Positions 1-20,977 of a stretch of DNA of 63,945 nucleotides are shown one piece after another. The position numbers were made by a program, and so were the translations under genes. Source of the DNA: an uncultured Gemmatimonadota bacterium (GTDB lineage: Bacteria > Gemmatimonadota > Gemmatimonadetes > Gemmatimonadales > Gemmatimonadaceae); contig CADEDA010000017.1 of NCBI GenBank assembly GCA_902825965.1, positions 1 to 63,945 on the forward strand. The letters are read 5' to 3'. The notes beneath the pieces were generated by a model. It ran no database searches, was not told where the DNA came from, and was given only the letters and a program-made list of their open reading frames with translations. Numbering within the stretch: the stretch's first letter is position 1; every line of letters begins with the position of its first letter.

Positions 1-214
1 CCGGGAGCGTCCGGAGTAGTCGCTCGTACTTCTCTTCCAGGGCAATCAATCGCGCTTCGCGCTCCGTCGACTCATCGACCAGTGCTTCCCGCGCTTCCCG
101 TCGGCCACGCTCCTTCCCAATCAGGAACGCGGCCGCCATCGCGCCCCCGATGAGGACCGTGCCAAGAAGAGATCCGACCAATCCGGTGAGCAAGGCAATC
201 GTTGTGTCATCCAT
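1..214 (-). CDS. Membrane-anchored coiled-coil protein, 3' end cut off
   Basis: The ATG is at 214 and the frame stays open to the left edge of the window, giving 71 visible residues. The N-terminus (MDDTTIALLTGLVGSLLG and on) is one hydrophobic segment, residues about 5-33. It is followed by a charged, heptad-like stretch rich in Arg, Glu and Leu (about 36-71) that should form a coiled coil. The layout is that of small single-pass membrane proteins with a cytoplasmic helical tail, but the family cannot be named from this fragment. No good Shine-Dalgarno is seen before the ATG. The gene is separated from the insertion sequence by 72 bases that contain a dyad. The reading frame is clear; the function is unknown. 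Confidence 0.6.
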   Translation of the reverse strand, partial: MDDTTIALLTGLVGSLLGTVLIGGAMAAAFLIGKERGRREAREALVDESTEREARLIALEEKYERLLRTLP

Positions 215-231
215 GGAGGTGTCCGCGAATG

Positions 232-273
232 GGGTCACACGCAAGTATTCCGTGCCTACGGAATCCGAGACCC
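232..273. repeat. Nested inverted repeat between partial gene and IS
   Basis: The outer arms are GGGTC (232-236) and GACCC (269-273). The inner arms are ATTCCGT (247-253) and ACGGAAT (258-264) around the loop GCCT. It lies upstream of the minus-strand gene that starts at 214, so it could be an operator or the terminator of something the IS displaced. There is no T-run. Confidence 0.35.
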
Positions 274-286
274 GGGTGTGTCATAG

Positions 287-316
287 TGTCCTCTTCCCCA
301 TGAGGGGGACCAGCGA
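287..316. repeat. IS terminal inverted repeat (3' end of the element)
   Basis: Begins TGTCCTCTTCCC and later shares GGACCA with the other end. About 22 of 30 positions match the repeat at 1452-1481 read on the opposite strand. Confidence 0.85.
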
Positions 317-324
317 TTCCTGGA

Positions 325-1155
325 CTATGCCGCGACCGCTGGCCTCGGCAGGAAGGTGAGCGGTGGGACCCCGCCGAGGCTCTCATGGGGTCGCCGCGCG
401 TTGTAGATCGGAAGCCAGCGTTCGGTCTCGAAGCGGACGTCGGCCAGCGAGCCGAAGACATAGGCGTCGAGCACTTCCGTGCGATAGGTCCCGTTGAAGC
501 GTTCGATGTAGGCGTTCTGGGTCGGCTTGCCGGGCTGGATGAAGAGCAAGCGGACGCGATGCTGCGCGGCCCACACCCGAAGCACCTCGCTGACCATTTC
601 CGGGCCGTTATCGAGGCGTAGCGCATCGGGCGCACCAAGGACGGCGATGAGCTGGTCGAGGATCGTGACGACCCGCACCGCCGGAAAGCTCCACGCGACT
701 TCGACGGCGAGCGCCTCGCGATTCCCCTCATCGATCACATTCATCGTGCGGAAGCGAGGGCCGGTGTAGAGTTGGTTTGACATGAAATCTATCGCCCAGA
801 CGCGATTGAGTACCGGTGGCGCGTCCAGCGGCTGCTTGACCCGTGTCGGGACGCGCTTCTTCGCCCGACGCGGCAGGTGCAGCCGCAGCTGGCGATACAC
901 GCGGAGCACCCGCTTCCGATTCCACCGATGGCCGGCGTTGCGCAGATGGAGGAAGCAGAGCCCGAAGCCCCACTGGGGGAGCTCGGCGACGAGCGCGGTC
1001 AGCGCCGCGATGATCTCCGCATCCCGGTCCAACCGGTCCTGCAGCGGCCGATAGAAGGCCGCCCGCGCGAGGGACGCCACCTGGCAGGCCCGACGGACCG
1101 AGAGGCCCTGGTCGACCAGGATGGCGATCACCTGCCGCGCCGCGGGCGGCGTCAC
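325..1155 (-). CDS. IS3-family transposase OrfB (DDE integrase core)
   Basis: This 276-aa protein is the catalytic half of the transposase. The N-terminal ~100 residues are the HTH_21-type helical region of IS3 OrfB proteins. The rve/DDE core follows, with catalytic acidic residues visible in WAIDFMS (first D), RLDNGPE (second D) and NAYIERFN (E). It ends with the usual NARRPHESLGG segment near the C-terminus. It starts at a GTG that overlaps the orfA stop (GTGA), so translation is coupled or uses a frameshift; no classic A6G slippery run is seen. The length is normal for the family and nothing is broken. In IS3 elements the OrfAB product cuts and joins the ends through a circular intermediate. 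Confidence 0.93.
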   Translation of the reverse strand: MTPPAARQVIAILVDQGLSVRRACQVASLARAAFYRPLQDRLDRDAEIIAALTALVAELPQWGFGLCFLHLRNAGHRWNRKRVLRVYRQLRLHLPRRAKKRVPTRVKQPLDAPPVLNRVWAIDFMSNQLYTGPRFRTMNVIDEGNREALAVEVAWSFPAVRVVTILDQLIAVLGAPDALRLDNGPEMVSEVLRVWAAQHRVRLLFIQPGKPTQNAYIERFNGTYRTEVLDAYVFGSLADVRFETERWLPIYNARRPHESLGGVPPLTFLPRPAVAA

Positions 1156-1418
1156 AGCTTGCGACCGAGGACCTCCTTGATCGCCGCGTTCTCCATCGCG
1201 AGATCCGCGTACATCCGCTTCAAGCGGCTGTTCTCCTGCTCGAGCTCCTTCAGCCGCTTGAGCTCGGCCACGGTCGCACCCCCGTACTTGGCCCGCCAGG
1301 CGAAAAAGGTGGCCTTGCTGATCCCGTGCTTGCGCACCACCTCCGGAATCGCGAGGCCCGCCTCCGCCTCCTTCAGGATCGCGACGATCTGGGACTCACT
1401 GAACTTCGAACGGCGCAT
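1152..1418 (-). CDS. IS3-family transposase OrfA (HTH_Tnp_1)
   Basis: This 88-aa protein has the standard OrfA layout. A helix-turn-helix fills residues 1-50 (MRRSKFSESQIVAILKEAE, then HGISKATFFAWRAKYGG). A leucine-zipper-like helix follows at about 55-85 (LKRLKELEQENSRLKRMYA). OrfA binds the terminal repeats and regulates transposition in this family. It starts 60 bases inside the element's right end. Its stop shares bases with the GTG start of orfB, which favours translational coupling. Confidence 0.92.
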   Translation of the reverse strand: MRRSKFSESQIVAILKEAEAGLAIPEVVRKHGISKATFFAWRAKYGGATVAELKRLKELEQENSRLKRMYADLAMENAAIKEVLGRKL

Positions 1419-1451
1419 GACGGCTCCTTGGTCATCGCCATAGTCTAGCTC

Positions 1452-1481
1452 TCAGTGGTCCGCCCCGCAGGGAAGAGGACA
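1452..1481. repeat. IS terminal inverted repeat (5' end of the element)
   Basis: Read on the minus strand from 1481 it begins TGTCCTCTTCCC and pairs with 287-316. The orfA promoter should lie between this repeat and 1418. Confidence 0.85.
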
Positions 1482-1517
1482 TGCGTCGACGCGCTCATCT
1501 CGGCAGGCGGTGCGGGC

Positions 1518-1545
1518 CACAGGCCGGTGTGATGACACGCCTGTG
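1518..1545. terminator. Hairpin downstream of the helicase gene
   Basis: The arms are CACAGGC (1518-1524) and GCCTGTG (1539-1545), continued by GTGT/ACAC around the loop GATG. It lies 32 bases past the stop of the DruE-like gene. On the minus strand no T-run follows. On the plus strand it is followed by a T-rich stretch (TGTTGTTGTTTATG). A weak or bidirectional terminator is the likeliest reading. Confidence 0.4.
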
Positions 1546-1576
1546 CATGTTGTTGTTTATGCTGACTCGCGACCTC

Positions 1577-4500
1577 TCAGCCGAGCTTCTCGATAAGATT
1601 CTTCGTGGCGAACGGGAGGTTTCGCCGCACAACCAGTTCGTCCTCGAGGTGAACGGTAAGCGAAGTGGCGTACTCCTTGACGTCCTTGAGGCCAGCGTCC
1701 GTCGGCTCGTTCGGCGTCAGGGGCCCATGCAGCCCGATGACGAACTGCGCGCCGCTCGCGTTGGTCACGAGGATAGGCGCGACCACGTCGCCGAGGCCGG
1801 CAACCGAGATCTGCTTGTCGCGCTCCAGCGTAAGCCCTTCGATGTCCTGTCGATCGAGATCCTCGAACAGGAGGTTGGTCGAGCGCGCGACGCGATCCGC
1901 GCTGAGCGTCGGGGCAGCGTTGCTGAGGACGAACCGCAACAGACTCGCGCCGAGGTGGCGGTCCAGGAGGTCGTGCTCGAACTTGTTCTTATAGCTGCGG
2001 AGGCAACGGTAACAGGAGCGGTCGCAGTTGTCCGGACAAACCGCAAGCAGCCTGAGCGCATCCTCGAAGATCGGGAGCCCAACGTCCCCCACGCGTTTCG
2101 CGAAGCCGGCGCCGCCGGGGAGCGTGTCGTAGATGTAGATCTCGGACTCGAGCCCCGCGTGCCCCTCCGGCGTGAGCGCCGGGCGGTACTCAGCTTGGAG
2201 TTCGTTCGCCTCCAACTCGAGCCGCGCGCACGCGGCCTTGGTTACCGCCTCGCAGATGGTGCGCAGTGCGACATCGGTGGCGAGCACTCCCGGCGCCAGT
2301 GTGACGGGCGCGTCTACACGAATCGAGACGAGCAAGACGTCGGTGATGAAGTCGGTGCCTAGCACCAAGCCCTTTGTCACGCCGCCGCCCGGACACGTCG
2401 GTTCCTTGAGGTCGGGGTACGGCTTACGGTGAGCGGCGCCGACGGTGCCGTTCGGGTTCGCAGTCGGCTCGATCAGCCCGCACTTGGTACAGTACGTATA
2501 GCCTTCCTCGCGCGGACCTCGGTTTGTGACGAGAAGGTGCTGCCGTGTGTGGTGAACGCGGAGGCGGTTGTTCATCCGCTTCCACTTCGTAACATCTGCC
2601 GGCGAGGGAGCCGTGAGCTTCGCCCGCGTCGCGTAGCTCTTGGCGGGTACGTCGTCAGGTGTCGTTCCCTCCGGCTTGCCGACGGGGTGCGCGAATCCAG
2701 GCGGGCGCAGCCACTGCGTCGCGGGCCCGAGGGTGCCGACGCCTCCGCATGCGTCGCAGTCCTTGGTCTCGCCGCGCGAGCCGTCCTCGAACGTCGTGGT
2801 CCTCGCGTAGTGGCACACACTACACTCGTAGTAGAGGCGTCGCCCGAGCCACGCGCGGTGTCTGTCGTCGCGCATGGGTGAATAGATCGCTTCGGAGGTC
2901 CACAGCCTGTTGCCGATCCAGACTTCCTTACCCGGCGCGTACTGCGAGAGCGCGATTGTGAGGCCTTGCGACGGCGTGAACTGGAAGATGGGACGGTACA
3001 TCGTCGAGTTGATCGGATCGAAGACGTGGAACGTCGCGACATCGGTCGGGAACGCGTAGCGAGGGAGGACGCCACGGTAGAGGAGCCGGTCGAGCAGGTT
3101 TTCAGAGGCCGGGTCACGCCCCGGCTTCTCCTCGCCCTCCTCGTCGGGCGCTTCGAGGCTGGTGTCCGTGCTCGCAGAGGTGGTCCCGTTTCCTTCAGCG
3201 GCGGGCGGTGACGCTGCTATCGAAGCAGGTGCTGCTGCCGCCGTAGGCGTCGGTGGCTCGCATTCGATTGCCGCGTCGATCGGCTCCATCGTCTTCGGCA
3301 CGAGTTCGTCGAGCAGGCGCTTACGTTCGGCGGCCGCGAACTGCTGCGGGAGCCACGCGTCGACCTCAGCGCGTAGGGTCGCCTCATTCGATTCGAGCCA
3401 CTTCTTGAGGTCCGATCGGTTGAGCACCTTCGCGGACCTCTTGAAATCGGCCACGGTGCCGAGCACGGCGAAGAGGTGCGGCTGCTCCTCTGGCTTGATG
3501 GTGGGCAACTTACCCTGGTGGTAGCGCTGCAGCAGGTAGGCGGTGACGTGTCGTCGGATGATCTCGCTGTTGTCGAGCGTGAGGAGCGGGTCGTCGACGG
3601 CGCCACGGATCATCTGGTCAGGATTCGAAAAATAGTGCTCGTCATGGCTGTCTGCGCTACCGAAGGCGGTCACGGTCGCGACGGCGTTTCCTCGACGACC
3701 AGCGCGGCCTGCGCGCTGCTGGTAGTTCGCGCGCGCGGGCGGCAGGTTCCGCAACGAGACGCCGGAGAGTGACCCAATGTCGATACCAACCTCCATCGTT
3801 GTCGTGCAGGACAGCACGTCGATAGCGGGCCGATAGTGCCCGGTGCCATCGTCGCCGAGGTGCACATCTTGGAAGAGCAGTTCGTGCTCCTCCGCCTTCG
3901 AGAAAACCTCGTCCGCCTGCGCAGTGTTGAGTTGCGCGGTGTGCTCCGCCGCGATGAGCGCCATCGGCGGCAACGGCGGAACCTTCAACGCGTCGACAGT
4001 GCTCGCGCGGTAGTAGCCCTTGCGCGCGACGAAGACCTTATCGGTGTTTGGGTCGATAGCCGTCGCGGTGGGCTGTCCGCAGTCCACGCAGATGGTGCGG
4101 CCGGGGAACGGGCGCTGCGCCGTCTTGCACGACTGGCAATAGGCCCACGGGCCGCCAACGTAGAGACAGAGTTCGCTGCCCTTCAAGTGATACTTGTTCG
4201 GAGCCGCCTGCTCGCCGAACTTCTGGAGCAGTTCGGGTAACCACTCCTTGTTGAAGAACGTGCGCGCGGGCTTGTCCACAAAGAGTCGATCCATTTCGTC
4301 GAACTTGCCGGAGCGAGATTGAAACTGACGGCTTGAGTTGCGCCAAGCGGGTGGCATCTGACTCATCCAGAGGCCCGCGCGCCCCCAGCAACGCATCCAC
4401 GAGCGTGCGGTCGCGAGCTTCTGCTCCGAAGTCGTCGCGAAGTTCGGGATGCCTGCGAGTGCCTCGATCCACGCCGTGTGGTCTGCGCGCTCGCGAAGCG

Positions 4501-7147
4501 ACGCGAGAGCGAGCGCCTCGAGACCATAGTAGCCATCCCCCAGCGCATTTACGATCGCGCGCAGCAGCGACTCCGGCGGTCGAGACGCGCGCAGTTTGCC
4601 CCAGAGTGTAAGCAGCGCTGCGGGATTGGAGAGAGCGTTCGCTCTTATGGCTGCATCCACGTCAAGTTCATCTTGGAAGCTCTCGCCAGCCTTGAGCTCG
4701 GGTCGGAGCCGGACGCCCAACTCCTTCATCGCGATCAGCACGCCGAGGTAGAGGTCGTCTAGCGATAGCAACGGTGCCACCGATGCAATGCCAGCGAGGC
4801 GCACGTAGCCCGCAACGACGAGGGGACGGATCGCGTCCTGCGTCGAGTACGTCTGGAGGTTCGGCGCGAGGCGCGCCGCGGTCTGACGCGAGTCAGAGAA
4901 GATGAGAACCTTGCGCCCGCGCAGCGGAGCGAGCTTGGTCGCGGGTACAGGGCTAGGCGGCTGCACCTGAATCTGCTTTGCGATGAGCGCTTGGAATGGC
5001 TCGTCGCCCTTCGTCTGATGATCTTGGACGGAGGAGCGCCCGAACGACGCGCGCGCTCCACAGACGGCGCACGGACGAAACTCTCCGGGCTTCGTGTCCT
5101 GAGGTTCGTCGTCAGTTGTGGGCTGTGATCGACCGGCGCGGATGTAGACCTGTCTGTTTCGCGCGCCGAGCTTTTGCGAGTTAAGCCGCCCGGTGACGAG
5201 ATCATACTCGGCGGGCTCAGCGAAGTCGTTGAAGACAGGCTTTTCGAGGAGGAGGTCGAGCGGAGATATCTCATCGACGAATCCAGCGAGCGTTCGGAAC
5301 GCGCCGCCTGGCTCCGCCCAGAGGAAATCTGGGTTGTCGACGTTGTTGGTGTACGCGCGAGCGTGCGCGGTCCCGCAGTTCCGGCACGTGTACAACTCCA
5401 ACACCCGGGCGCCGCAGTCGCACGTGTCGCGCGGCTGGCTGTAAAGCTTGCCTGCGGGGCCTCCACGCTCAGCCGCGGGGAGGCTCGTGCAGTTGGGGTC
5501 CATGCAGACCCAGAGGCCCGCGAGGCCGCGGTAGAACGAGTGGACTCGGCAAGGCAGGAGGCCGGGCTCTGTCGGCTCCCGGCGTGCAACGCTGCCCAAA
5601 GCGATGAGGTTCGTCACCGCGCGGGCGGCGACGTCGGCCACGATGCCTGTCTCGAACAACTTGGTGCCCAGCTCGTCGACCGGCTGTGCTTCTTTCATCG
5701 TAGAGTTGACGAGGCTCGACATCGGCCCGAACGACTCTAGGGCTTTGTAGAGCGAGGGTTGCAGTTCCCACGGCGGTGCGATCCCTCGATACTTGAGAAA
5801 GCACTCGATGACCTTCACGCGGTCGGCGTCGTTCGCGGCCTCGTAAAAGTCGTTTAGGTTGAACGCGTCGAGTGCGGCGGCGTCGGCGGCCGTCCCCTTC
5901 GCGGCGCCGGGCCGCTCAAGGAGATCGCCTTGGACCTTTCGAAACTCCGCCGGGTCCTTGCCCGTGAGCTGCGCGCCGAAGTCGACGGCATAGTCCGCGT
6001 CCTTGAAGCTGGCGCTCGTGCAGATGACCTGCAGGCGCTCCGGGGGGATGCCGAGCCGCGTGCGCAGACGCCGGATCAGCAGCGCCACCTCGGCGCCCTG
6101 CGCGCCCCGATAGAGGTGAGCCTCGTCGATGACTAGGAGGAAGCGCTCCTCAGGGGACTTCTCGAGCCACTCGCGCGTGAGATCGAAGATGGGCCGCTCA
6201 AGCGGGCGCATCAACATGTACTCGAGCATCGAGTAGTTCGTGACGAGCACGTCAGGCGGTGCCGAGTGGACCTCGTGGCGTGTGACGAGTTCAGGGTCAT
6301 CCGGAAGCGTCACGCAGCGCTCGAAGTCGCCGTTCTTGTCGAGCCAGCGCCCCTTGCCGTACCACGCCGCGAGGTCGGGCTTCGCCGGCCACTTGCCGCG
6401 CTTCTTCAACTCGTTCACGAGGTAAGCGGCCTCGATTTGCTCAGACGAGGGAGGACCGGAGGCGACCTCGAGGGCCTTGACGTAGTACTTCCCGATCGGC
6501 TTCAGGCGGTCTTGGTCCTTGTCCTTGTCGCGAACGCCGGGGTACAGCGTACGGCTGGTGTAGCGGGCGAATCGCGCGGGGCGCCCGGACCAGCCAATGA
6601 AGCGCTGGACGATGCGGGGGTCGCCGAGCAGCAGCCGGAGGCGGCCGAGTTGATCGTTGACTAGTGCGTTCATCGGGTAGAGCACCATCGCGCGCACGGC
6701 GCTGGTCGCGCCGAACTCCTTGCCCTTGACCTTGGCTTCAGTAGCGAGTTTTCCGAGAATCGGCAGGAGGAAGCACTCGGTCTTTCCCGAGCCGGTGCCT
6801 GTCATCACCACGAGGCTGCGCCCTTCGGCGAGCGAAAGCTGTGTCGCGAGTGCTTGGTGCTGGTAGGGTGGGTCGTGGATCAGCAGCCCGAGGTCGCCCT
6901 CCGGCGCCGAAACCGACGTGAAGACGTCGAGCGCCGCCCCTGGAAGGCCGAGGTCCGCGAACTTCTTCCCCGGTTTGTAGCGCGGCGTGCTCTCTAGGTA
7001 CGGGCGCTGGTGGATGACGCCGACCAGGTCAAGCAGCGCACTGCGCTGATCGACAAGCGTCGGATGGCTCACGTGGTACGTGGCCTCGATATAATCGCGC
7101 AGGGCGCGGTGGAGCTGTTGGGTCGTCTCGCCGATGGTGAGTGCCAT
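1577..7147 (-). CDS. druE: DruE-like giant DEAD/DEAH helicase with DUF1998
   Basis: This 1,856-aa protein is the last gene of the operon. Helicase lobe 1 has Walker A GTGSGKT (about residue 115), YPMNALVNDQ, TNYSMLEYML and the DEAH box VIDEAH (about 340). Lobe 2 has IFSDSR (about 750), TTTMEVGIDIG and the motif VI QRAGRAGRRG (about 1147). A Pro/Ala/Glu-rich linker lies at about 1310-1370, then a Cys4 cluster (CSVCHYA...CDACGG). The C-terminal DUF1998/MZB-type zinc region has IYDTLPGGAGFA and CPDNCDRSCYRC (about 1705). This layout and size match DruE, the hallmark helicase of Druantia defence systems; DISARM DrmA/DrmB and DpdJ are related alternatives. The DUF4338 gene in the same operon favours Druantia. 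It starts 14 bases after the 363-aa gene and no strong Shine-Dalgarno is seen. Confidence 0.82.
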   Translation of the reverse strand: MALTIGETTQQLHRALRDYIEATYHVSHPTLVDQRSALLDLVGVIHQRPYLESTPRYKPGKKFADLGLPGAALDVFTSVSAPEGDLGLLIHDPPYQHQALATQLSLAEGRSLVVMTGTGSGKTECFLLPILGKLATEAKVKGKEFGATSAVRAMVLYPMNALVNDQLGRLRLLLGDPRIVQRFIGWSGRPARFARYTSRTLYPGVRDKDKDQDRLKPIGKYYVKALEVASGPPSSEQIEAAYLVNELKKRGKWPAKPDLAAWYGKGRWLDKNGDFERCVTLPDDPELVTRHEVHSAPPDVLVTNYSMLEYMLMRPLERPIFDLTREWLEKSPEERFLLVIDEAHLYRGAQGAEVALLIRRLRTRLGIPPERLQVICTSASFKDADYAVDFGAQLTGKDPAEFRKVQGDLLERPGAAKGTAADAAALDAFNLNDFYEAANDADRVKVIECFLKYRGIAPPWELQPSLYKALESFGPMSSLVNSTMKEAQPVDELGTKLFETGIVADVAARAVTNLIALGSVARREPTEPGLLPCRVHSFYRGLAGLWVCMDPNCTSLPAAERGGPAGKLYSQPRDTCDCGARVLELYTCRNCGTAHARAYTNNVDNPDFLWAEPGGAFRTLAGFVDEISPLDLLLEKPVFNDFAEPAEYDLVTGRLNSQKLGARNRQVYIRAGRSQPTTDDEPQDTKPGEFRPCAVCGARASFGRSSVQDHQTKGDEPFQALIAKQIQVQPPSPVPATKLAPLRGRKVLIFSDSRQTAARLAPNLQTYSTQDAIRPLVVAGYVRLAGIASVAPLLSLDDLYLGVLIAMKELGVRLRPELKAGESFQDELDVDAAIRANALSNPAALLTLWGKLRASRPPESLLRAIVNALGDGYYGLEALALASLRERADHTAWIEALAGIPNFATTSEQKLATARSWMRCWGRAGLWMSQMPPAWRNSSRQFQSRSGKFDEMDRLFVDKPARTFFNKEWLPELLQKFGEQAAPNKYHLKGSELCLYVGGPWAYCQSCKTAQRPFPGRTICVDCGQPTATAIDPNTDKVFVARKGYYRASTVDALKVPPLPPMALIAAEHTAQLNTAQADEVFSKAEEHELLFQDVHLGDDGTGHYRPAIDVLSCTTTMEVGIDIGSLSGVSLRNLPPARANYQQRAGRAGRRGNAVATVTAFGSADSHDEHYFSNPDQMIRGAVDDPLLTLDNSEIIRRHVTAYLLQRYHQGKLPTIKPEEQPHLFAVLGTVADFKRSAKVLNRSDLKKWLESNEATLRAEVDAWLPQQFAAAERKRLLDELVPKTMEPIDAAIECEPPTPTAAAAPASIAASPPAAEGNGTTSASTDTSLEAPDEEGEEKPGRDPASENLLDRLLYRGVLPRYAFPTDVATFHVFDPINSTMYRPIFQFTPSQGLTIALSQYAPGKEVWIGNRLWTSEAIYSPMRDDRHRAWLGRRLYYECSVCHYARTTTFEDGSRGETKDCDACGGVGTLGPATQWLRPPGFAHPVGKPEGTTPDDVPAKSYATRAKLTAPSPADVTKWKRMNNRLRVHHTRQHLLVTNRGPREEGYTYCTKCGLIEPTANPNGTVGAAHRKPYPDLKEPTCPGGGVTKGLVLGTDFITDVLLVSIRVDAPVTLAPGVLATDVALRTICEAVTKAACARLELEANELQAEYRPALTPEGHAGLESEIYIYDTLPGGAGFAKRVGDVGLPIFEDALRLLAVCPDNCDRSCYRCLRSYKNKFEHDLLDRHLGASLLRFVLSNAAPTLSADRVARSTNLLFEDLDRQDIEGLTLERDKQISVAGLGDVVAPILVTNASGAQFVIGLHGPLTPNEPTDAGLKDVKEYATSLTVHLEDELVVRRNLPFATKNLIEKLG

Positions 7148-7161
7148 GACTGTGTCCGGTG

Positions 7162-8253
7162 CTACGAGGGGTTCGCGCTGATCTCTTGAAGCCAGAGGGA
7201 GTCACCTGCAAATCGCAACTCCTCTGGCAGCTCAGCGTCTCTCAGCCGATATGCGAACAGACAGCCTGATGCCGCGACCGGCTCCCCGACGGCATCCCAT
7301 CTGCGGCGGATCCACAATGGAAGCGGTGAGAAGAACTCCATCACGCGCGTCCCCTCAGGACCGGAGCGGATTCGGAAATGCTGAGGATTCCCACCGTGCG
7401 CGTCGATCGCCATCTGCAGTCGCCAGGCCTCGTCGCATCCGCGCCACCGACTACCTACGCTCGGGAAGTCGATAAGACGCTCCGGGCTGCCGTTACACAT
7501 CTCGATGTAGCACCAGAGATCGGCGCCGTAGGCTTGGCTTCGACGCGCGACGTAGCGGCCGGAATGGGAGCGCGGCTCCACCCACCTTCCACGGTAGTAG
7601 CGAACGCCCCGCGTCGGATCCAAGAGCGACAAACCCGGCACCTCACGGGAGGGCTGCGCGGCATCCAACATCTGATCGAGACGCGCCACGTGCTGCGAGG
7701 CTGTCTCGGGCTGTGGGGCTCTCGACCAAGTGCGAAAAGAGACCTCGAGAAGGCCGAGATGGAGAAGATCAGAACGCAAGTCCTCTCCTTGGCCAGAGCT
7801 TAGACGACGCAAGTGGTTCACGTATTCAATACGGGCCTCGAGTTTGTCCGGCAGGGGCGATAGCTGGTCGGTGGTAACGCCGAGCAGGAAGACCGTCCCG
7901 CTCTCGCGCGCTACGAAGCCGGCGGGCGCCGCGTAGAGGAGCGCCGCGGCTCCGTGCCCGGGATCTTCTTCGACGTCGCGGTGCTCGAGGATGTCGCCGT
8001 GCGCGATCATCGCCTCGAGCGTCTCGTGGACGAGTTCCTTGAACGCGTCTAGGTCCTGGACTAGGCCACGCATCGGACGCACCACGGCGCGGATCAACGT
8101 CAGTGCGGTGCATGGACAGAGGAAGCTTGCCGCACGACGAAGAGCGCCCGCAACCGCCTCGATTGACGTGAGATCAACTGCGCTCGGGTCGAGCCCCAAC
8201 TCGGTCACCATCTGAGCGTGGACATCTGCCGCACCGAGCTGTTTCATGACCAC
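7162..8253 (-). CDS. Unknown protein of the Druantia-like operon (363 aa)
   Basis: The family is not recognised. The protein looks soluble, with no signal peptide, membrane segment or nucleotide-binding motif. The N-terminal ~120 residues are predicted helical. The C-terminal half is rich in Trp, Tyr and Arg (RYYRGRWVEP, YGADLWCYIEMCNG, PLPLWIRRRW) and ends in a short beta-rich tail, as expected for a scaffold or substrate-binding module. The start overlaps the stop of the 973-aa gene by 10 bases, and the stop lies 14 bases before the helicase start, so co-translation is very likely. By position it corresponds to druD in the five-gene type I Druantia order (druABCDE), but I cannot show homology. 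Confidence 0.75.
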   Translation of the reverse strand: MVMKQLGAADVHAQMVTELGLDPSAVDLTSIEAVAGALRRAASFLCPCTALTLIRAVVRPMRGLVQDLDAFKELVHETLEAMIAHGDILEHRDVEEDPGHGAAALLYAAPAGFVARESGTVFLLGVTTDQLSPLPDKLEARIEYVNHLRRLSSGQGEDLRSDLLHLGLLEVSFRTWSRAPQPETASQHVARLDQMLDAAQPSREVPGLSLLDPTRGVRYYRGRWVEPRSHSGRYVARRSQAYGADLWCYIEMCNGSPERLIDFPSVGSRWRGCDEAWRLQMAIDAHGGNPQHFRIRSGPEGTRVMEFFSPLPLWIRRRWDAVGEPVAASGCLFAYRLRDAELPEELRFAGDSLWLQEISANPS

Positions 8254-11165
8254 CGCCAGCTTGCGTAGAGCTCACCCGCCGCGGCCTGTGACTGGAGGTG
8301 CCGGTCCGTAGCGATGACCATGAACCGCGCGGCCCTAGTTAGAACAGGTACTTCTTCGAACAGTTTCTGGATGGAGGGTCGCAGGTGCGGGCCTGCCCAC
8401 ACCGCTACATGAGCCGGGCTGCTTGCGATGCGCAGTGAAAGTTCGGCAAGCCACAAAGCCGTCTCACGGCCATCCTCAGACACATCGGCTGTGAGAATTC
8501 GAAAGCTCCGTGCAAGCGTCGCGAGGCGCGCGACTCGCGCTTCAAGCTCAACAGCGGCCAGCTGGTCGATTTCAAGGGCGATGGCTACGGCTACGCCAAC
8601 CTGATCCCGGCGACTCGAAACAGCCTGCTTCAGTGCCGACAAGTACGCGTCACTGCCGTTTTCCACCGAGTTCTCTGCGCGGGCCCAATGATCGCCGCCA
8701 AGCAAGTACAGTATGTGCCGAGTGAGTGCCTGAAGAACGCTCCGCCGCTTGGTCGACGAGAGAACGTCGCCCGACGATCTAGCCGAATGCCAGAGCCGAG
8801 CATACTCAAGTGCCGCAAACACCTCATCAACGGAGCGAACTCCAGCCTTGATTTGTGGGGTCGCCCTAAGATCCGACAAGTTCCGGATTCTGCGCGGCAC
8901 TGCGATGAGACCGGCGGTGGCGTCGCCGCGATGCGCAGCGAACAAACCGCCGGGTGGGACGACCGGGAACTCCAGAGAGGGCGACAATCGAGTAGCCTCG
9001 GTAGGCTTGTCGAAGCCGAAGAGCTCGAGGTTCGCTGTATCCCCTGCACCACTGTCGTCTACGAGTCGCGCAATGGCATCGGCGCCGCGCTGGCGAAGCG
9101 CCCAACGCAACGGAACAAAGTCGCGCTCACAGTCGACCGTGAACGTGCCGAGTTCCTCGGCAACAAACACGAGGCGGCAAAGGCGCGCGCTGTCATAGGC
9201 ATCCTGAACCTTCTTGTCTCCACGAAAGCGCTGCTCGACTAAAGCCTTCCACTTGACGCTCTGCAGCGGCAACCGGATGGGAGGAAGGTCCACCTTGATG
9301 GTGGGCTCCGTAGCCATGCCTTCAAATAGTGTGAGGGCGCACCTGATCTGGCGTCCGGTAGGACCCCAGACGTCGATATCAACCTGGCCTTCCCATAGCT
9401 GCTCCATCGTTGGTGCTGGAGGATGCACCTGAACGACGAGGGGTCCGGAGCGCGCAACACCAGCTGTCCACGGACGCGCTTCTCGGACTCGAATTACGAC
9501 ATTAAGATCACCTAGCGGCTCAGCTTGTCCCGCGGAACTGCTTCGCGTGCATATCCGGACGGTGTGGAGTCCGACAGGTAACTGCGGGAGTTGCACGAAG
9601 ATCGGCTCGCCGGGCGTGAGGGAGTTCAATTCAAGCTGTGCACCCGGGTCGACAGACACGATCAGCGCCGCGATAGGATGGTCAGTACGGATCGCCAGGC
9701 AGGGGCGCTCAGACGCCAACCACTCCCCGTGGCCCTCTCCGTCCCAAAGGGCCGAACCGAGGCCCGCCGGCCAGACTTGGACGGTCTTCGTCTGCCCGAG
9801 GCCGAAGCGGCGCAGTGCCTCCTGCCAGTCTCCCGTGAGGGCCGCAGGCAGTTCGAGAAGCGCACCACGGACCCCCTCACACTCAAGCTGAACTGCGAGG
9901 ACGTGATCATCGGTCGCTATTGATTCTGCGGTGCTGACCAGGACGTAGTGCTCGCCGGGGCGAACCCGGAGACTACGCGACTCGTATGCGAAGCCGTCAG
10001 ACGCGATCCTGAAGAGCCACCGAGGTCCAGGACGCAGGAGACATTCCGCACGGAGCAGGTACTCGAGTTGTGCATCCATTTTCTCGAACTGTAACAGCAC
10101 CTCGTCGTCGCGGGGCCAGCGCGACAACGTAACCCGCTTGGTGCCATACAGGCACCGACCACGCGCAAGCGGCCGGCCTGACGAGCCGGCCACTACACAC
10201 CGAGATTCTGTGAGGATGTCGCGGGACTTCGGGAACCGCAACAGCAGTTGCGAAAGATCCGGGATTTCTAGCAAGACCTCCCAAGATGATGCATCCGAAG
10301 CCTTGGGCCGAAGCATAAGGCGCGGCTCGATCCCTAGGGCGGCAACCTCGGCCCGCGCCTCATCTGGGCGACGAACGATGGTCGATGTGGCCCTGCGGCC
10401 GAGTGCGAGGCCCCGAAGGGTCCTGCGCTCCTGAGCTGCGCGGCGAGCCCCGCGCAGCCACTCACGCGCCTGCCGCTCACGGTCGAGATCCTCTCCGATC
10501 CTCCGGAGCGCCGCCGGGTGGAGAAGGCCACTCGCGTTCGGTTGACCCTCTAGCAGCAGGGCCGCGGCGATCTGCCCGACCAGGTGCGTCTGTTCCGCGA
10601 AACTCTGAAAACGCGAAGTAGCGGTCCAGCTCCGGCTCCCGATCAGTTCACCGAGTTGCTGGGGAAACTCGAACACTTCCGCGGAAAAGGCGTGACGCAG
10701 TTCGTACAGTATGCGCGCGAGCTGGCGCTGCAGATCTCGCGGCAGGATGGCATGGGTGATCGGCCAGCAGATGATCGAGAAGTGATCAGCCCATGCGCCG
10801 GACGGTTGCGCGCCCCGACACGTTCTCTGAAACTCCTGGAAGCGGCTTCTAATCCAGTAGCGGTCTCCGTGGGTGGTCCAGCCGGGAGTCTGCTCTTCGA
10901 AGGTCTGCCAATACTCATCGCCAGCGTAGCCGTATCCGATCTCGGCGGCGTAGACGATCCAAGGAAGCGCTTGATCGGCCGATGGGACGCTGTGGACGAT
11001 CTGCTTCCTGATAGCAGCGGCGACCGCCTGGAACTCAATGCTATCGAGTCCGTGCTCGAGAGCGAAGAGGGGAGTCCCATTCGGACTGGCGCCCCGTCGA
11101 GATGCGAGATCTCGGAAGTGCTCAGCGAGCCGCAACTGCCACGAAGCAAGTTCACTCATTACCAC
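8244..11165 (-). CDS. Large unknown protein of the Druantia-like operon (973 aa)
   Basis: No named domain is visible and no membrane segment or signal peptide is present. The first ~250 residues are helical and contain a distinctive block (WIVYAAEIGYGYAGDEYW, then FEEQTPGW, about 65-95). The centre (about 270-680) looks beta-rich, with Ig-like alternation. The last ~250 residues are helical again and contain a conserved-looking segment on His/Trp (LWHSARSSGDVLSS). The start overlaps the druA-like stop by 7 bases and the stop overlaps the next start by 10. It could be a fusion of DruB and DruC functions or a relative of the large DruH protein of type III Druantia; both ideas are inference. Codon use and the ATG start look normal. 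Confidence 0.75.
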   Translation of the reverse strand: MVMSELASWQLRLAEHFRDLASRRGASPNGTPLFALEHGLDSIEFQAVAAAIRKQIVHSVPSADQALPWIVYAAEIGYGYAGDEYWQTFEEQTPGWTTHGDRYWIRSRFQEFQRTCRGAQPSGAWADHFSIICWPITHAILPRDLQRQLARILYELRHAFSAEVFEFPQQLGELIGSRSWTATSRFQSFAEQTHLVGQIAAALLLEGQPNASGLLHPAALRRIGEDLDRERQAREWLRGARRAAQERRTLRGLALGRRATSTIVRRPDEARAEVAALGIEPRLMLRPKASDASSWEVLLEIPDLSQLLLRFPKSRDILTESRCVVAGSSGRPLARGRCLYGTKRVTLSRWPRDDEVLLQFEKMDAQLEYLLRAECLLRPGPRWLFRIASDGFAYESRSLRVRPGEHYVLVSTAESIATDDHVLAVQLECEGVRGALLELPAALTGDWQEALRRFGLGQTKTVQVWPAGLGSALWDGEGHGEWLASERPCLAIRTDHPIAALIVSVDPGAQLELNSLTPGEPIFVQLPQLPVGLHTVRICTRSSSAGQAEPLGDLNVVIRVREARPWTAGVARSGPLVVQVHPPAPTMEQLWEGQVDIDVWGPTGRQIRCALTLFEGMATEPTIKVDLPPIRLPLQSVKWKALVEQRFRGDKKVQDAYDSARLCRLVFVAEELGTFTVDCERDFVPLRWALRQRGADAIARLVDDSGAGDTANLELFGFDKPTEATRLSPSLEFPVVPPGGLFAAHRGDATAGLIAVPRRIRNLSDLRATPQIKAGVRSVDEVFAALEYARLWHSARSSGDVLSSTKRRSVLQALTRHILYLLGGDHWARAENSVENGSDAYLSALKQAVSSRRDQVGVAVAIALEIDQLAAVELEARVARLATLARSFRILTADVSEDGRETALWLAELSLRIASSPAHVAVWAGPHLRPSIQKLFEEVPVLTRAARFMVIATDRHLQSQAAAGELYASWRWS

Positions 11166-12343
11166 GTTGGCCCTGGTCCGCCGTCACGCAACGCGTCAAT
11201 TATTCGGCGTCGTGCGAAGCGCTTGTATCTCTTATCCCTCTCAGCCCTCGGCAAGACCCAGCGCTGGAGGCAGAAGTTGGCGATCTCGCTCGCTGGCTGC
11301 ACGCACGAACGAGTGTTGACGTGCGCGCCCAGAAGAACGTTCTTCCAGTTGGTCGCCAAAGGTACAGCATAGACTTCGCGGGGGATGGTGTGTTTCAGAA
11401 TGGAGTTCCCGTCAACTCCAATGCTCTCGAGCGCCGCACGTATGACGCGAATCTTCCAGTTCGGTCCCATCCCGAAGCGATGTCCCGAGGCGTAAGGATG
11501 GCCGATGTCTTCAAGGTGGGTTCGCAACGACTCGAAGATGCTGCCAGAGAGGTGAAAATGTCCAAAGCCGCGGGTTGAACCCAAGTGCTGAAACTTCACT
11601 CCCCCGGGCAGAGAAAGTCGGTTATACATCGACGACCTTCCCAATGCCGACGTTGTCGTCAACAGAACTAGACGAGCCCTATTCTCGACCTCGCTGATGA
11701 CTGCACGGCTTCCGAGGTACTTTCGCTCGTAAGCAGCTTTCACTTCCTTGCTCGTCATCAACGCTGCTACGAGTTTGCCGCCAATCAATAGTGAGTATGG
11801 TGGCAACGCCCCTACTACGTACGCATCCATGACATGAACGAGCCGATCGCTCCGATCCTGGTGTGTCCAACCAATCCAGGAGTCTCTCGCAGTGAGATTA
11901 AAGACTGGGTCTCCGAGCGCAAACATCCCGACGAGGCAGCCATTCTGCCGATCTCGCACTAGGAATCGCAATCGTCGGCCGAATCCTTGCGAGACTGGCA
12001 CCGACCACAACAGGCTTGCGAGCCGGAACAGCCGCGATTCCTCCGAGCCAGCTCTAACCTCAACGAGTTCTGGATCGATGGCCTCAGGATTGAGTTGCTT
12101 GCCCGTCGAGAACCAGTGAGCAAGATCGGACCATTCGGCTTCGACGAAGTCGCGATGGTGCGCCACGATCTCGTGACGATGCACTGCGTGCAAGTCTCGG
12201 ACCTTCTGTTTCGATAGCTCGCCATCCACGAAGTAGCCGTGGCCATTCTTCGTGAAACCAAGAGCGACGAGGTGCGCGTGAATACTGCGCCGTAAGGATG
12301 CAGCGCTCTGAGAGCTTCTACGCGCATTCTGCTGAAACCCCAT
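11159..12343 (-). CDS. druA: DruA-like DUF4338 protein
   Basis: This 394-aa protein matches the DUF4338 pattern that defines Druantia DruA. The N-terminal helix contains LRRSIHAHLVALGF. It is followed by the SKQKVRDLHAVHR block, a W..L..WFSTGKQLNPEAIDPELVEV segment, LVGMFALGDPVFNL and the highly typical RDSWIGWTHQDRSDRLVHV (about 175-195). The SLLIGGKLVAALM region comes next. A basic tail (ERDKRYKRFARRR) closes the protein. Its biochemical role in anti-phage defence is not settled. It is the first gene of the operon, with GGAGA about 11 bases before the ATG, and its 3' end overlaps the 973-aa gene. A putative attC half-site (12420-12426) lies 77 bases upstream. Confidence 0.8.
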   Translation of the reverse strand: MGFQQNARRSSQSAASLRRSIHAHLVALGFTKNGHGYFVDGELSKQKVRDLHAVHRHEIVAHHRDFVEAEWSDLAHWFSTGKQLNPEAIDPELVEVRAGSEESRLFRLASLLWSVPVSQGFGRRLRFLVRDRQNGCLVGMFALGDPVFNLTARDSWIGWTHQDRSDRLVHVMDAYVVGALPPYSLLIGGKLVAALMTSKEVKAAYERKYLGSRAVISEVENRARLVLLTTTSALGRSSMYNRLSLPGGVKFQHLGSTRGFGHFHLSGSIFESLRTHLEDIGHPYASGHRFGMGPNWKIRVIRAALESIGVDGNSILKHTIPREVYAVPLATNWKNVLLGAHVNTRSCVQPASEIANFCLQRWVLPRAERDKRYKRFARRRIIDALRDGGPGPTW

Positions 12344-12419
12344 TGTGTGCTGCGTCTCCTAGTCCGTAGACCGCAGAAGTAAAGGCACTGCCTCACGTGT
12401 GCTGCTGCTGCGATCGCTC

Positions 12420-12468
12420 CCACAACCGCTACACCAGCTGCGCTCGTCGGCAGCAAGCGTCGTTATGC
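12420..12468 (-). other. Possible short attC site downstream of the 229-aa cassette gene
   Basis: Read on the minus strand, it starts with GCATAAC (12468-12462) just after the stop of the 229-aa gene. It ends with GTTGTGG (12426-12420), which roughly fits the integron core site GTTRRRY. The arms pair partly: AAC/GTT, CGCT/AGCG and GCTGC/GCAGC. At 49 bp it is shorter than typical attC sites and the last core base is not a pyrimidine. It is therefore much weaker than the site at 13199-13332, and position is the main support. Confidence 0.35.
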
Positions 12469-12488
12469 GGCTACGTGTCGGAACGGGG

Positions 12489-13178
12489 CTACTCGAACCG
12501 GCGCACCACCCTACTCGAGCCGACTGCGCGTTCGATTACCAGTTTGCGAGGCCGTAGTTGGCGACGCTCTTTGGGCGCAGTCTCGACAAGCAGCTCGTCT
12601 TTGACCCTGTGCGCGAGACTCACAACCTCAGTGTCGGCCTCAAGCCTCTTCTCGCCAAGTTCCTTCGCCCCAAAGGCGTGTTCGATCGCGCGGATCAGCT
12701 GAGGGTCCGCACCTTCGTCGCCCGAACGAAGAATGCGGAGTGCCTTCGAGGCCGCTTCATCAGGCGAGAGTCGCTTCTCAGTAACCTGACGATGTAGCCG
12801 CTCGAGTGCCGTCAGCTGGCGCGTCGTTACGCGAGTAGAAAGGACGCGGTTGCCGTCCTCTGAGGCCTTCGAGCGAAGTCGGCGCTCAATGAACTTGGCT
12901 GCAACTCGAGCGTGTTCTCGAATGGTTGCGAGCCCATCCCAGAACGCACCATAGTTTCCGATAGCCAGAACCAGAGCTGCTGACGAACCCACAATCCAGG
13001 CCGCAGCCTGAATGCTGCCCGGCCAGACCTCGACTCGCGTGCCGCGATCATCCGAGGAGAAGATATTCTGCCCGGCCGCCTCGGCCGCCTCATATGCTAC
13101 GCTCCCATAGTCCGTTAGATCGGACTCCGAGGAAGACGACGAGGAGACGCGGAGATATGAGCGCGCGACGGTAATCAA
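12489..13178 (-). CDS. Putative gene-cassette protein, one membrane segment (229 aa)
   Basis: The family is not recognised. The frame starts at TTG, about 20 bases after the GTTATGC core site of the preceding attC-like element, with no clear Shine-Dalgarno; both traits are common in integron cassettes. A Ser-rich N-terminus (SSSSSSES) is followed by one hydrophobic segment at about 58-80 (AAAWIVGSSAALVLAIGNYG). The rest is a long charged helical region of about 150 residues with a very basic end (RRQLRPRKL). That suggests a membrane-tethered coiled-coil protein with a cytoplasmic tail. It points the same way as the Druantia-like operon and lies 145 bases upstream of it. It could be a separate cargo gene or an accessory defence gene. 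No internal Met codon offers a better start. Confidence 0.6.
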   Translation of the reverse strand: MITVARSYLRVSSSSSSESDLTDYGSVAYEAAEAAGQNIFSSDDRGTRVEVWPGSIQAAAWIVGSSAALVLAIGNYGAFWDGLATIREHARVAAKFIERRLRSKASEDGNRVLSTRVTTRQLTALERLHRQVTEKRLSPDEAASKALRILRSGDEGADPQLIRAIEHAFGAKELGEKRLEADTEVVSLAHRVKDELLVETAPKERRQLRPRKLVIERAVGSSRVVRRFE

Positions 13179-13198
13179 GAGTATGCCTTGTCAGGTCC

Positions 13199-13332
13199 GC
13201 ATAACGTCAGGTTGTGCCGTGGCCGCTTCAATCAACTGCAGGTGGGCGGCCGTGCGATTCCCTAAAGTACCACCGAGCACGGCCGCCCACCGGCTTCCCT
13301 AGCGCGGTCATCGGCACCAACCGCCGTTAGCC
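13199..13332 (-). other. attC-like integron recombination site (134 bp)
   Basis: On the minus strand it begins GGCTAAC (13332-13326) and ends GTTATGC (13205-13199), matching the outer cores of attC sites. The arms fold together: GGTTG[G]TGCCG[A]TGACCGC on the 5' arm pairs with GCGGCCACGGCACAACC on the 3' arm. This leaves two unpaired bases (bracketed) on the 5' arm only, plus one mismatch. Asymmetric extrahelical bases on the 2L arm are a hallmark of real attC sites and give the direction, here minus. The centre contains a perfect 15-bp stem (GGTGGGCGGCCGTGC, 13241-13255, with 13277-13291). The length is within the known attC range. Confidence 0.62.
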
Positions 13333-13382
13333 TGCCGACGTCGGTAGCTCGCGTACGCCGCTCGAAGTGATTCCGGCGGCCG

Positions 13383-13535
13383 CTAAATCGAGCAGAATCC
13401 AGCAACGACTGTCAACACGAGCAACCAGACAATCAACTTGGTTCCGAACGTGGTCTGCGGCTTGCCGCATTGTGGACATACACGCGCGGAACAGCTGATG
13501 CGCGAACCACAGTCGCCACACGATCGAAGGCCCAA
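13383..13535 (-). CDS. Small zinc-ribbon membrane protein, putative cassette gene (50 aa)
   Basis: This short frame reads from TTG (13535) to TAG (13383). It has a four-cysteine zinc ribbon, CGDC (residues 6-9) and CPQC (20-23). One transmembrane helix follows at about 33-48 (KLIVWLLVLTVVAGF). A good Shine-Dalgarno (GGAGA) lies 7 bases upstream of the TTG. It sits between a GTTAGCC half-site (13558-13552) and the attC-like site at 13199-13332, the expected layout of a one-gene cassette. Zinc-ribbon plus TM proteins of this size occur widely in bacteria without a known role. The Cys spacing, helix and ribosome site together make it a credible gene despite its length. Confidence 0.62.
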   Translation of the reverse strand: MGLRSCGDCGSRISCSARVCPQCGKPQTTFGTKLIVWLLVLTVVAGFCSI

Positions 13536-13551
13536 GGGCTATCTCCGGTCA

Positions 13552-13558
13552 GGCTAAC
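13552..13558 (-). other. Isolated GTTAGCC core half-site at cassette cluster edge
   Basis: On the minus strand GTTAGCC resembles an attC R' or attI core. No matching partner core is found in the 100 bases upstream of it, so it may be the junction with an attI or with a secondary insertion site rather than a full attC. Confidence 0.3.
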
Positions 13559-13868
13559 GTATACTATGCTGCGTGCATTCGCTCCAGTCGGTCCGTGAAA
13601 CATTGCAGCCCCGCACAGCATTCAGCAACGGCCCCGCCAGCCGTAGCCCTGCACACAGCACGGCATCTCTGGTCCCCTCACCTCGTCCACTCCACGCGCC
13701 ACTCCAAGCCCCCACCAGCACTTGGCCCCTTCGGCGCTCAGTCGCCCGTCCCACCGGACCCGGCGTACCGCGCCGCCATACGCGCTCGGTCGCGATCCCC
13801 TGTCCGCGTCGTGTACGGCGCTGCACGCCGCCTTGGCGGCAAGCGCTCCCCACTGGGTGTCCCGGCCC
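13559..13868. other. Intergenic stretch with no supported gene
   Basis: This ~310-base, C-rich stretch lies between the cassette cluster edge and the terminator of the small operon. Several frames are open because stops are rare at this GC content. None has a ribosome site, a recognisable domain or sensible amino-acid composition. Confidence 0.5.
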
Positions 13869-13869
13869 A

Positions 13870-13910
13870 TTCGCAAACAACAGGGGCAGCCACGCGTCCG
13901 CGGCTGCCCC
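13870..13910 (-). terminator. Intrinsic terminator of the small minus-strand operon
   Basis: On the minus strand the arms GGGGCAGCC (13910-13902) and GGCTGCCCC (13891-13883) form a strong 9-bp GC stem. It is followed by the T-rich tail TGTTGTTTG. It lies 40 bases past the stop of the 80-aa gene. Confidence 0.7.
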
Positions 13911-13950
13911 CGTCCCTACCCTGCGACTCTGCTACTCTCCCTCGTTCCTC

Positions 13951-14193
13951 CTACTCCCGCCGCCCCACCCGTGGCGGCTCACTCAGCGCCGCCAACAGCG
14001 CCCCACACGCCGTGAGCACCGGCGGCAGCGCCACCGCCAGCTGCGGCACCGCCTCACTCAGCGCCACCAGCACCGCGTGCGTGGGCTGCACCGTCGCCAG
14101 CGCGCCCAGGATCGCGATCGCGGCGCCCAGCAACGCCTGCGCCCCCTGCGGCGGTCCCTGCGGCGGCCCCTCACCCCTCCCCTTCATCTTCAT
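13951..14193 (-). CDS. Small hydrophobic protein (80 aa)
   Basis: The protein starts at ATG 14193 with a strong AGGAGG 7 bases upstream. After a short Gly/Pro/Gln-rich head (GPPQGPPQG) there are about two hydrophobic stretches at residues 20-45 and 50-70, and then a charged tail (EPPRVGRRE). The size, two hydrophobic stretches and charged tail recall holin-like or other small membrane proteins, but no family is recognised. It is the third gene of a minus-strand unit with the DUF2188 protein and the 246-aa protein, and a terminator follows it. Confidence 0.55.
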   Translation of the reverse strand: MKMKGRGEGPPQGPPQGAQALLGAAIAILGALATVQPTHAVLVALSEAVPQLAVALPPVLTACGALLAALSEPPRVGRRE

Positions 14194-14262
14194 CCTCTTG
14201 CCTCCTCGGTCTTGAGGTGTCCTCCCACTCGCTCCTCGCTCCTCGTTCCTCCGCTCGTCCCG

Positions 14263-14496
14263 CTACCGCCCATCCCGCGGCGGGTACGGATCATTCCCGT
14301 AGGAGTTCTTCGCCGCGATCAGCCCATCCAGCCGATGGATCGTGTGCTCCACCGCGAGCCGCCGCGCGAGATCTCGCCCGTCCGCCACCGCATCCACCTT
14401 GCGCCGGTGTCGCGATTGGACGCGCCCGTCCAGCTTGTTCCACCAGCCGCGCCCCGTCGCCGCCGGCACGGTGTGTACGCCTCCGCCTCGCTTCAT
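14263..14496 (-). CDS. DUF2188 domain protein (77 aa)
   Basis: The C-terminal half carries the DUF2188 signature. HTVPAATGRGWWNKLDGR is followed by a helix that includes AVADGRDLARRLAVEH, and then by the sheet/tail HRLDGLIAAKNSYGNDPYPP. DUF2188 proteins are small, often stand-alone and of unknown function. Here the N-terminus is the usual ~10 residues, so the protein is complete. A GGAG-type ribosome site lies in the 15 bases before the ATG. It lies 48 bases after the 246-aa gene and 69 bases before the 80-aa gene, so the three probably form one transcript. Confidence 0.72.
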   Translation of the reverse strand: MKRGGGVHTVPAATGRGWWNKLDGRVQSRHRRKVDAVADGRDLARRLAVEHTIHRLDGLIAAKNSYGNDPYPPRDGR

Positions 14497-14544
14497 TGGT
14501 TGGTTCTCCGATTGATGGTTGTGTTGAGGAGTGTCAGGTCCGTT

Positions 14545-15285: not shown

Positions 15286-15416
15286 CGTCCTGCCCTCCTA
15301 TGGAAGTGTGTGGACGCACGGCTTGCCGGACTGCCCCGCCCGTGTGCGTCCGTCACGGACGGCCGGAGAAGAACGCCGATCGCTACGGCTGCAGCGGCGA
15401 TCGGACCGACGACACG

Positions 15417-15815: not shown

Positions 15816-15916
15816 TGCAGGCGCCGACGCGTCGCCACGTCCATGGGCTGCGCCGGCCGCGCGGTGGGCGACGCAATCCGCGCGGCAGCGCGCATAACGC
15901 GCGCCGCCGGGATTTC

Positions 15917-16620: not shown

Positions 16621-16653
16621 GAGACGTGATCCGATCCCTTCACCCGCACCACC

Positions 16654-20964: not shown

Positions 20965-20977
20965 GGAACGGCCGCGC

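What the first reader, a model, noticed from the sequence alone, without database searches (positions are those of the whole stretch)
1577..12343. Druantia-like defence operon with an atypical middle: DruA (DUF4338) + 973 aa + 363 aa + DruE
Four minus-strand genes are spaced -7, -10 and +14 bases. The first carries the DUF4338 pattern (RDSWIGW block) and the last is a 1,856-aa DEAD/DEAH-DUF1998 helicase, the two markers of Druantia. The published type I system has five genes (druABCDE), type II has a methylase with druFG, and type III has druH-druE. Here druA and druE bracket two proteins I cannot place in those types, so this may be a new subtype or a druB-druC fusion form. The operon sits beside an IS and cassette-like DNA, as expected of a defence island.
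Basis: partly seen in the sequence, partly recalled or inferred. Interest (0 to 1): 0.85.

Follow-up and report, generated by a model that had tools for sequence, protein, structure and literature searches.

The report
Druantia variant with unrecognised Ig-domain protein
The four genes are a copy of a widespread but uncatalogued version of the Druantia anti-phage system, in which one 973-aa protein of a new family (helices around a chain of immunoglobulin-like domains, possibly the phage sensor) replaces two standard genes; this copy also seems to have lost the DNA-cutting gene that its nearest relatives carry, where a transposable element now sits.

Summary
Observation confirmed: four minus-strand genes, spaced -7/-10/+14. 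Only the 973-aa protein ("DruX") matches nothing in PADLOC, Pfam or NCBIfam. It is not a detectable DruB-DruC fusion: profile comparison with DruB and DruC finds nothing, while the same method links this operon's DruD to E. coli DruD. A genome scan gave 42 DruX loci in at least ten phyla. DruX is followed directly by DruD in all 38 loci with both genes, usually then by DruE, and never with DruB or DruC. AlphaFold shows helices, a beta-sandwich array with a clear Ig-like domain, then helices. DruX is the fastest-evolving gene of the operon. The likely reading is a sensor/adaptor analogous to DruH of type III (inferred). Two further results: in 24 loci a nuclease-like gene directly follows druE; in the window only about 85 bp of it remain beside an IS3 copy, so this copy is probably damaged. 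The operon also looks mosaic: DruE is 90% identical to a gammaproteobacterial one, DruX 50%, DruA 29%, changing at the druE start. New variant of a known kind; no function tested.

The parts
11159..12343 (-). druA, short form (394 aa, DUF4338)
   Evidence: PF14236 E=4e-85, PADLOC PDLC00002 461 bits; a published analysis calls DUF4338 a GNAT domain (PMC10853773)
8244..11165 (-). 'druX': 973-aa protein of a new family in place of druB-druC
   Evidence: no family hit; 42 homologous loci; AF2 pLDDT 84.6
9471..9788 (-). Ig-like beta-sandwich domain of druX (residues 460-565)
   Evidence: VIA Z 8-9.5, mostly 2.2-3.5 A for the single-domain matches
7162..8253 (-). druD (363 aa)
   Evidence: PADLOC PDLC00010 385 bits; profile link to E. 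coli/P. putida DruD E=2e-5; AF2 pLDDT 91
7924..8190 (-). winged-helix domain of druD (residues 22-110)
   Evidence: VIA Z 9.4 to cullin WHB, Z about 7 to Fur/PerR
1577..7147 (-). druE (1856 aa), SF2 helicase with MrfA Zn-binding domain
   Evidence: PDLC00013 1937 bits full length; DEAD, Helicase_C, MZB; Walker A 116-123 and DEAH 341-344 conserved
7101..7200 (.). inferred recombination junction at the druD/druE boundary
   Evidence: DNA identity to Halotalea (L035) rises from 53-72% to over 84% here; druE 90% aa against druX 50%, druA 29%
1482..1566 (-). remnant of the start of a DruK-like PD-(D/E)XK nuclease gene
   Evidence: DNA similarity to the gene that follows druE in L035/L023; no start codon at the matching place, net 1-nt deletion, ends at the IS; no copy found elsewhere in the genome
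287..1481 (-). IS3-family element abutting the nuclease remnant; no target duplication seen
   Evidence: HTH_Tnp_1, rve/rve_3; TIRs; second full-length copy; flanks

Best explanation
This is one copy of a widespread Druantia type I variant: DruA, DruX, DruD and DruE, in many relatives followed by a nuclease-like gene. DruX takes the place of DruB and DruC. SHOWN: homology of DruA, DruD and DruE; conserved DruX-DruD-DruE linkage without DruB/DruC; predicted fold of DruX (helices, beta-sandwich array with an Ig-like domain, helices) and of DruD (winged helix); DruX evolves fastest and DruE slowest; a PD-(D/E)XK gene follows druE in 12 loci of the window's DruE clade and a SF1-helicase-like gene with an apparent nuclease motif in 12 loci of the other; in the window the nuclease gene is reduced to a remnant. 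INFERRED: DruX detects a phage component, as DruH is thought to in type III; DruD helps load the complex on DNA; DruE, a 3'-ssDNA-loading helicase by homology to type III DruE, unwinds phage replication intermediates; the downstream nuclease cuts them, because type I DruE carries a predicted inactive nuclease domain. DruA's role is unknown (GNAT-like enzyme in one published analysis). The window copy is then probably impaired unless the nuclease is dispensable or supplied by another gene.
For: Families. Operon conservation: DruX-DruD adjacent in 38 of 38 loci with both, DruD-DruE within -82..+40 nt in 34 of 36, no DruB/DruC in any DruX locus; also on a Nitrosococcus plasmid. DruE of DruX operons forms one group of 33 (SH-aLRT 99). 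DruX not DruB/DruC/DruH by profile with a working DruD control. Folds. Divergence: mean pairwise identity DruX 40%, DruD 44%, DruA 52%, DruE 61%, as reported for DruH against DruE (PMC13192584). Fifth gene; PADLOC DruK E about 1e-10 to 1e-13. Predicted inactive Vsr domain in type I DruE: PMC12458937; no conserved nuclease motif evident after MZB here. DruE loading on 3' ssDNA: PMC13192584.
Against: No functional data for this operon or, in the library searched, for any DruX operon. Nine DruX loci with full druE have neither nuclease gene downstream, so the nuclease is not universal. DruH and DruX share no detectable sequence, and Ig-like folds are common, so the sensor role rests on analogy. 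Foldseek matches to DruX are multi-domain with low TM-scores. The nuclease half of the 655-aa gene was read from motifs only; Pfam did not call it.
Confidence: 0.6

Rival explanations
1. The 973-aa protein is a diverged DruB-DruC fusion and the operon is ordinary type I.
For: It occupies exactly the druB-druC position between druA and druD; the canonical pair totals about 1180 aa.
Against: hhalign probability 0.4% (DruB) and 0.1% (DruC) while DruD of the same operons is detected; no PADLOC DruB/DruC hit for 39 homologues. P. putida DruC has a stretch that matches coiled-coil SMC-like models, DruX has an Ig-like array.
Confidence: 0.07
2. The four-gene operon is complete and functional as it stands; the downstream nuclease is an optional partner.
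For: Nine other DruX loci, including the Nitrosococcus plasmid, lack both nuclease genes after druE; all four window ORFs are open; canonical E. coli type I has no such gene directly after druE.
Against: The closest DruE relatives (L035, L023) keep an intact nuclease gene there and the window keeps a decayed piece of it.
Confidence: 0.3
3. The mosaic is an assembly artefact: a contig of a composite genome joining two Druantia operons at druD/druE.
For: The genome is in 73 contigs; identity changes abruptly at the junction; the AU test does not reject grouping DruX+DruD with the L035 clade (p=0.079).
Against: The junction falls at a gene boundary with normal 14-nt spacing and intact frames; the DruA types also differ (short against long); GC3 rises step by step from druA to druE.
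Confidence: 0.15
4. A DNA-repair or housekeeping YprA-type operon rather than defence.
For: YprA/MrfA helicases also act in DNA repair (PMC12458937).
Against: Patchy presence (3 of 395 genomes sampled in the phylum), plasmid copies, transfer between phyla, foreign GC and membership of the Druantia DruE1 group.
Confidence: 0.05

Closest known systems
Druantia type I (druABCDE; E. coli, P. putida pKF715A)
   Same: druA, druD and druE homologues in the same order; DruE1 and DruD1 PADLOC models hit
   Different: no druB or druC; druX in their place; DruE of DruX operons branches apart from canonical DruE (long branches); a nuclease-like gene often follows druE
Druantia type III (DruH-DruE)
   Same: large protein with helical ends and Ig-like domains, more divergent than its DruE partner (PMC13192584)
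   Different: no sequence similarity between DruX and DruH; type III DruE has its own active PLD nuclease and the system has two genes
Druantia DruK (PADLOC PDLC00058-60, PD-(D/E)XK)
   Same: the approx. 412-aa gene after druE in 12 relatives matches DruK at E about 1e-10 to 1e-13 in the three tested
   Different: modest score over part of the protein; in the window only a remnant is left
Unnamed SNF2-type clusters with DruE (Paracoccus, Leisingera) or DrmA/DrmB (Rhizobium)
   Same: carry a DruX relative (hhalign prob 100, E=4e-45, 738 columns); their DruE lies next to the DruX group in the tree
   Different: DruX relative is paired with a DpdE/DrmD-like SNF2 helicase; not a DruX-DruD-DruE operon

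Membership tests
Druantia type I | DruE1 helicase | tested here: met
   PDLC00013 1937 bits, residues 2-1854
Druantia type I | DruA (DUF4338) | tested here: met
   PF14236 286 bits, PDLC00002 461 bits
Druantia type I | DruD | tested here: met
   PDLC00010 385 bits
Druantia type I | DruB | tested here: not met
   no hit among window operon proteins or 42 DruX loci
Druantia type I | DruC | tested here: not met
   as for DruB
Druantia type I | anti-phage activity | not testable with these tools
   needs cloning and phage plating
Druantia type III | DruH partner | tested here: inconclusive
   no sequence similarity and no PADLOC DruH hit; DruH structure 9tud exists but was not superposed
Druantia type II / IV | DruM/F/G or DruF/DruL with DruE2 or DruE4 | tested here: not met
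   none of the four proteins hits them; DruE1 scores far above DruE2 (648) and DruE4 (614)
DISARM / Dpd | DrmA-DrmB or DpdJ as the main helicase | tested here: not met
   DrmA 47 and DpdJ 86 bits against DruE1 1937

The most novel reading that the evidence does not exclude
DruX is a general infection-sensing partner of YprA-type helicases, shared by Druantia and DISARM-like systems, inside a mix-and-match immune system: the upstream part (short DruA, or an ATPase plus long DruA), DruX-DruD, the DruE helicase and the downstream nuclease are exchanged between operons, and the window is a natural hybrid of a sensor half from one lineage with the helicase of another.
Probability: 0.35. Interest if true: 0.78.

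Novelty: new variant of a known kind. Interest (0 to 1): 0.6.

Why it matters
Type I Druantia has no mechanism, to my knowledge. This variant has simpler gene content than druABCDE, spans at least ten phyla and has a predicted fold for its unknown part. It suggests two testable rules: that an Ig-domain protein supplies recognition (as proposed for DruH in type III), and that the inactive nuclease of type I DruE is made good by a separate nuclease gene. The DruX family is absent from the PADLOC, Pfam and NCBIfam libraries searched, so annotation tools would probably report these operons as incomplete type I. The window's mosaic offers a natural test of whether sensor and helicase halves are interchangeable, as shown for DruE in mycobacterial type III (PMC13316683).

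Tried and rejected
DruB-DruC fusion. DruH homology by sequence. Pfam, PADLOC and PDB sequence searches with DruX alone and with its 39-member alignment: nothing credible; two of 39 members touched a DpdF model at best E about 4e-4, source not traced. DruX in viral contigs and phage records: none. DruA against solved structures to check the published GNAT assignment: no informative match. DruD Foldseek: no significant whole-fold match. Absence of DruH or of any other family from the fold-search lists is not evidence against it. The search for the missing nuclease elsewhere in the genome was empty, but had no positive control. Canonical druB in 369 genomes of one class: one weak partial hit, so I could not build deep DruB/DruC profiles; the comparison used two sequences each.

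Full report
WHAT IS THERE. The four ORFs and their spacing are as described. PADLOC assigns the first to DruA1, the 363-aa third to DruD1 (385 bits) and the fourth to DruE1 (1937 bits over the whole length); the 973-aa second gene has no hit in PADLOC, Pfam or NCBIfam even at E=1. I call it DruX. So the 'atypical middle' is one gene, not two.

CANONICAL REFERENCE. Type I from P. putida pKF715A and E. coli strain 165 is druA (409/404 aa), druB (558/548), druC (625/627), druD (349/347), druE (1841/1836). DruX does not match DruB or DruC by BLAST or by profile comparison (probability 0.4% and 0.1%). The same method finds DruD of the DruX operons homologous to canonical DruD (76%, E=2e-5, 250 columns), so the test had power, although the DruB and DruC profiles hold only two sequences each. 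PADLOC model PDLC00010 scores 385 bits on the window's DruD but 22 on canonical P. putida DruD: PADLOC already holds part of this lineage under 'type I', without DruX.

HOW WIDESPREAD. One scan of GTDB species genomes with a DruX profile gave 42 loci in, among others, Planctomycetota, Acidobacteriota, Chloroflexota, Bacillota, Gemmatimonadota, Thermodesulfobacteriota, Myxococcota, Actinomycetota, Bacteroidota and Pseudomonadota; Nitrosococcus and Sinorhizobium plasmids add more. DruX is followed by DruD in 38 of 38 loci with both (mostly overlapping), DruD by DruE within -82..+40 nt in 34 of 36, and no DruX locus holds DruB or DruC. DruA precedes DruX in 35: 26 short (<560 aa) and 9 long. An HSP90/MutL-like ATPase gene accompanies 8 of the 9 long forms and none of the short ones. 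In the phylum of the window, 3 of 395 sampled genomes carry DruX: patchy, as for mobile defence. A DruE tree puts all 33 DruX-type helicases in one group (SH-aLRT 99), next to two clusters that carry a DruX relative with an SNF2 helicase (the outer rows have long branches).

FOLDS. AlphaFold2 on 39 homologues gives DruX mean pLDDT 84.6, pTM 0.43: helices 5-249, beta-rich 282-755, helices 779-957. Residues 460-565 are a clear Ig-like sandwich (Z 8-9.5), and the whole beta part resembles strings of such domains in complement and macroglobulin proteins, at low TM-score. DruD (pLDDT 91) starts with a winged-helix domain (Z 9.4 and about 7). DruX is the most divergent gene: mean pairwise identity 40%, against 44% DruD, 52% DruA and 61% DruE in 23 operons. 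DruH of type III has helical ends, Ig-like domains and more divergence than DruE, and is proposed as the phage sensor (PMC13192584). DruX and DruH share no detectable sequence, so I claim analogy, not membership.

A FIFTH GENE. Type I DruE is reported to carry a predicted inactive nuclease domain (PMC12458937), and I see no conserved nuclease motif after the Zn-binding domain here. In 12 loci of the window's half of the tree, an approx. 412-aa PD-(D/E)XK gene (PF12705, 50-74 bits in the six tested) follows druE, usually within about 20 nt; the three tested match PADLOC DruK at E about 1e-10 to 1e-13. In 12 loci of the other half an approx. 655-aa gene follows, with a SF1-type helicase region and an N-terminal E-x-K motif that I read as a nuclease (this last step is by eye). 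Nine loci have neither. In the window, DNA similarity to L035 and L023 runs past the druE stop to about 1482, where the IS3 begins; the nuclease gene survives as about 85 bp without a start codon at the matching place, with a net 1-nt deletion. The DNA beyond the IS does not continue it, no target duplication is visible and no other copy was found in the genome. The element, or a deletion beside it, therefore appears to have removed the nuclease.

A MOSAIC. The window DruE is 90% identical to Halotalea (L035) and 87% to Desulfobulbus (L023), but DruX is 50-51%, DruD 60-61% and DruA 28-29% (long against short form). Against L018-L021 the figures are DruE 73-75%, DruX 54-58%, DruD 64-70%, DruA 67-70%. 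DNA identity to L035 rises at the druE start, and GC3 is 81% in druE against 64-73% upstream. The DruX+DruD tree places the window with L018 (93/96), outside the L035 group, but the AU test does not reject the alternative (p=0.079). I read this as recombination at the druD/druE boundary; an assembly artefact is not excluded.

MECHANISM. By homology to type III, DruE loads on 3' single-stranded DNA and unwinds it (PMC13192584). The proposed scheme - DruX senses, DruD aids DNA loading, DruE unwinds, a separate nuclease cuts, DruA modifies something - is inferred beyond that step. DUF4338 was called a GNAT domain in PMC10853773; I could not confirm it.

VERDICT. A genuine, widespread and uncatalogued Druantia type I variant, probably damaged in this genome. 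The variant itself I hold at about 0.9, the sensor-helicase-nuclease mechanism at about 0.45; the single confidence given (0.6) is for the whole statement. I found no description of DruX in the papers searched, which cover open-licence PMC only.

Noticed in passing
L009 (Paracoccus versutus pTAV4) 5257-23446; L010 (Leisingera) 1-21890: Another unnamed cluster: DruX relative, DpdE/DrmD-like SNF2 helicase, weak DruD-like protein, NERD-UvrD protein, DruE, long DruA and MzaB-like ATPase(s).
   Followed up: partly
L006 (Rhizobium ruizarguesonis pTA1_2) 1-14879; L007 (Azospirillum) 1-11003: A DruX relative next to DrmA/DrmB-type genes (checked in L006) with an SNF2 helicase in L006: DruX-like proteins also occur in DISARM-like loci.
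   Followed up: partly
L004 and L005 (Sinorhizobium medicae plasmids): DruX operons broken by insertion sequences (IS21 in L004, IS3 within druE in both) and a frameshifted druX: decay by IS is not unique to the window.
   Followed up: no
L023, L026, L033, L035, L036, L040, L042, L050 upstream of druA: HSP90/MutL-like ATPase gene linked to the long DruA form only, 8 of 9 long against 0 of 26 short.
   Followed up: partly
window 15413-16111: 21/42-bp tandem-repeat tract readable in several frames on both strands; no cassette recombination features were examined.
   Followed up: no
window 43670-46564: Predicted protein kinase fused to a Big_2 Ig-like domain and RCC1 repeats.
   Followed up: no
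L012 (Meiothermus) and L013 (haloarchaeon), downstream of druE: Weak matches to the DruK-like nuclease after other DruE helicases (E 7e-6 and 4e-7), suggesting that a separate nuclease gene may be common across Druantia-like loci.
   Followed up: no
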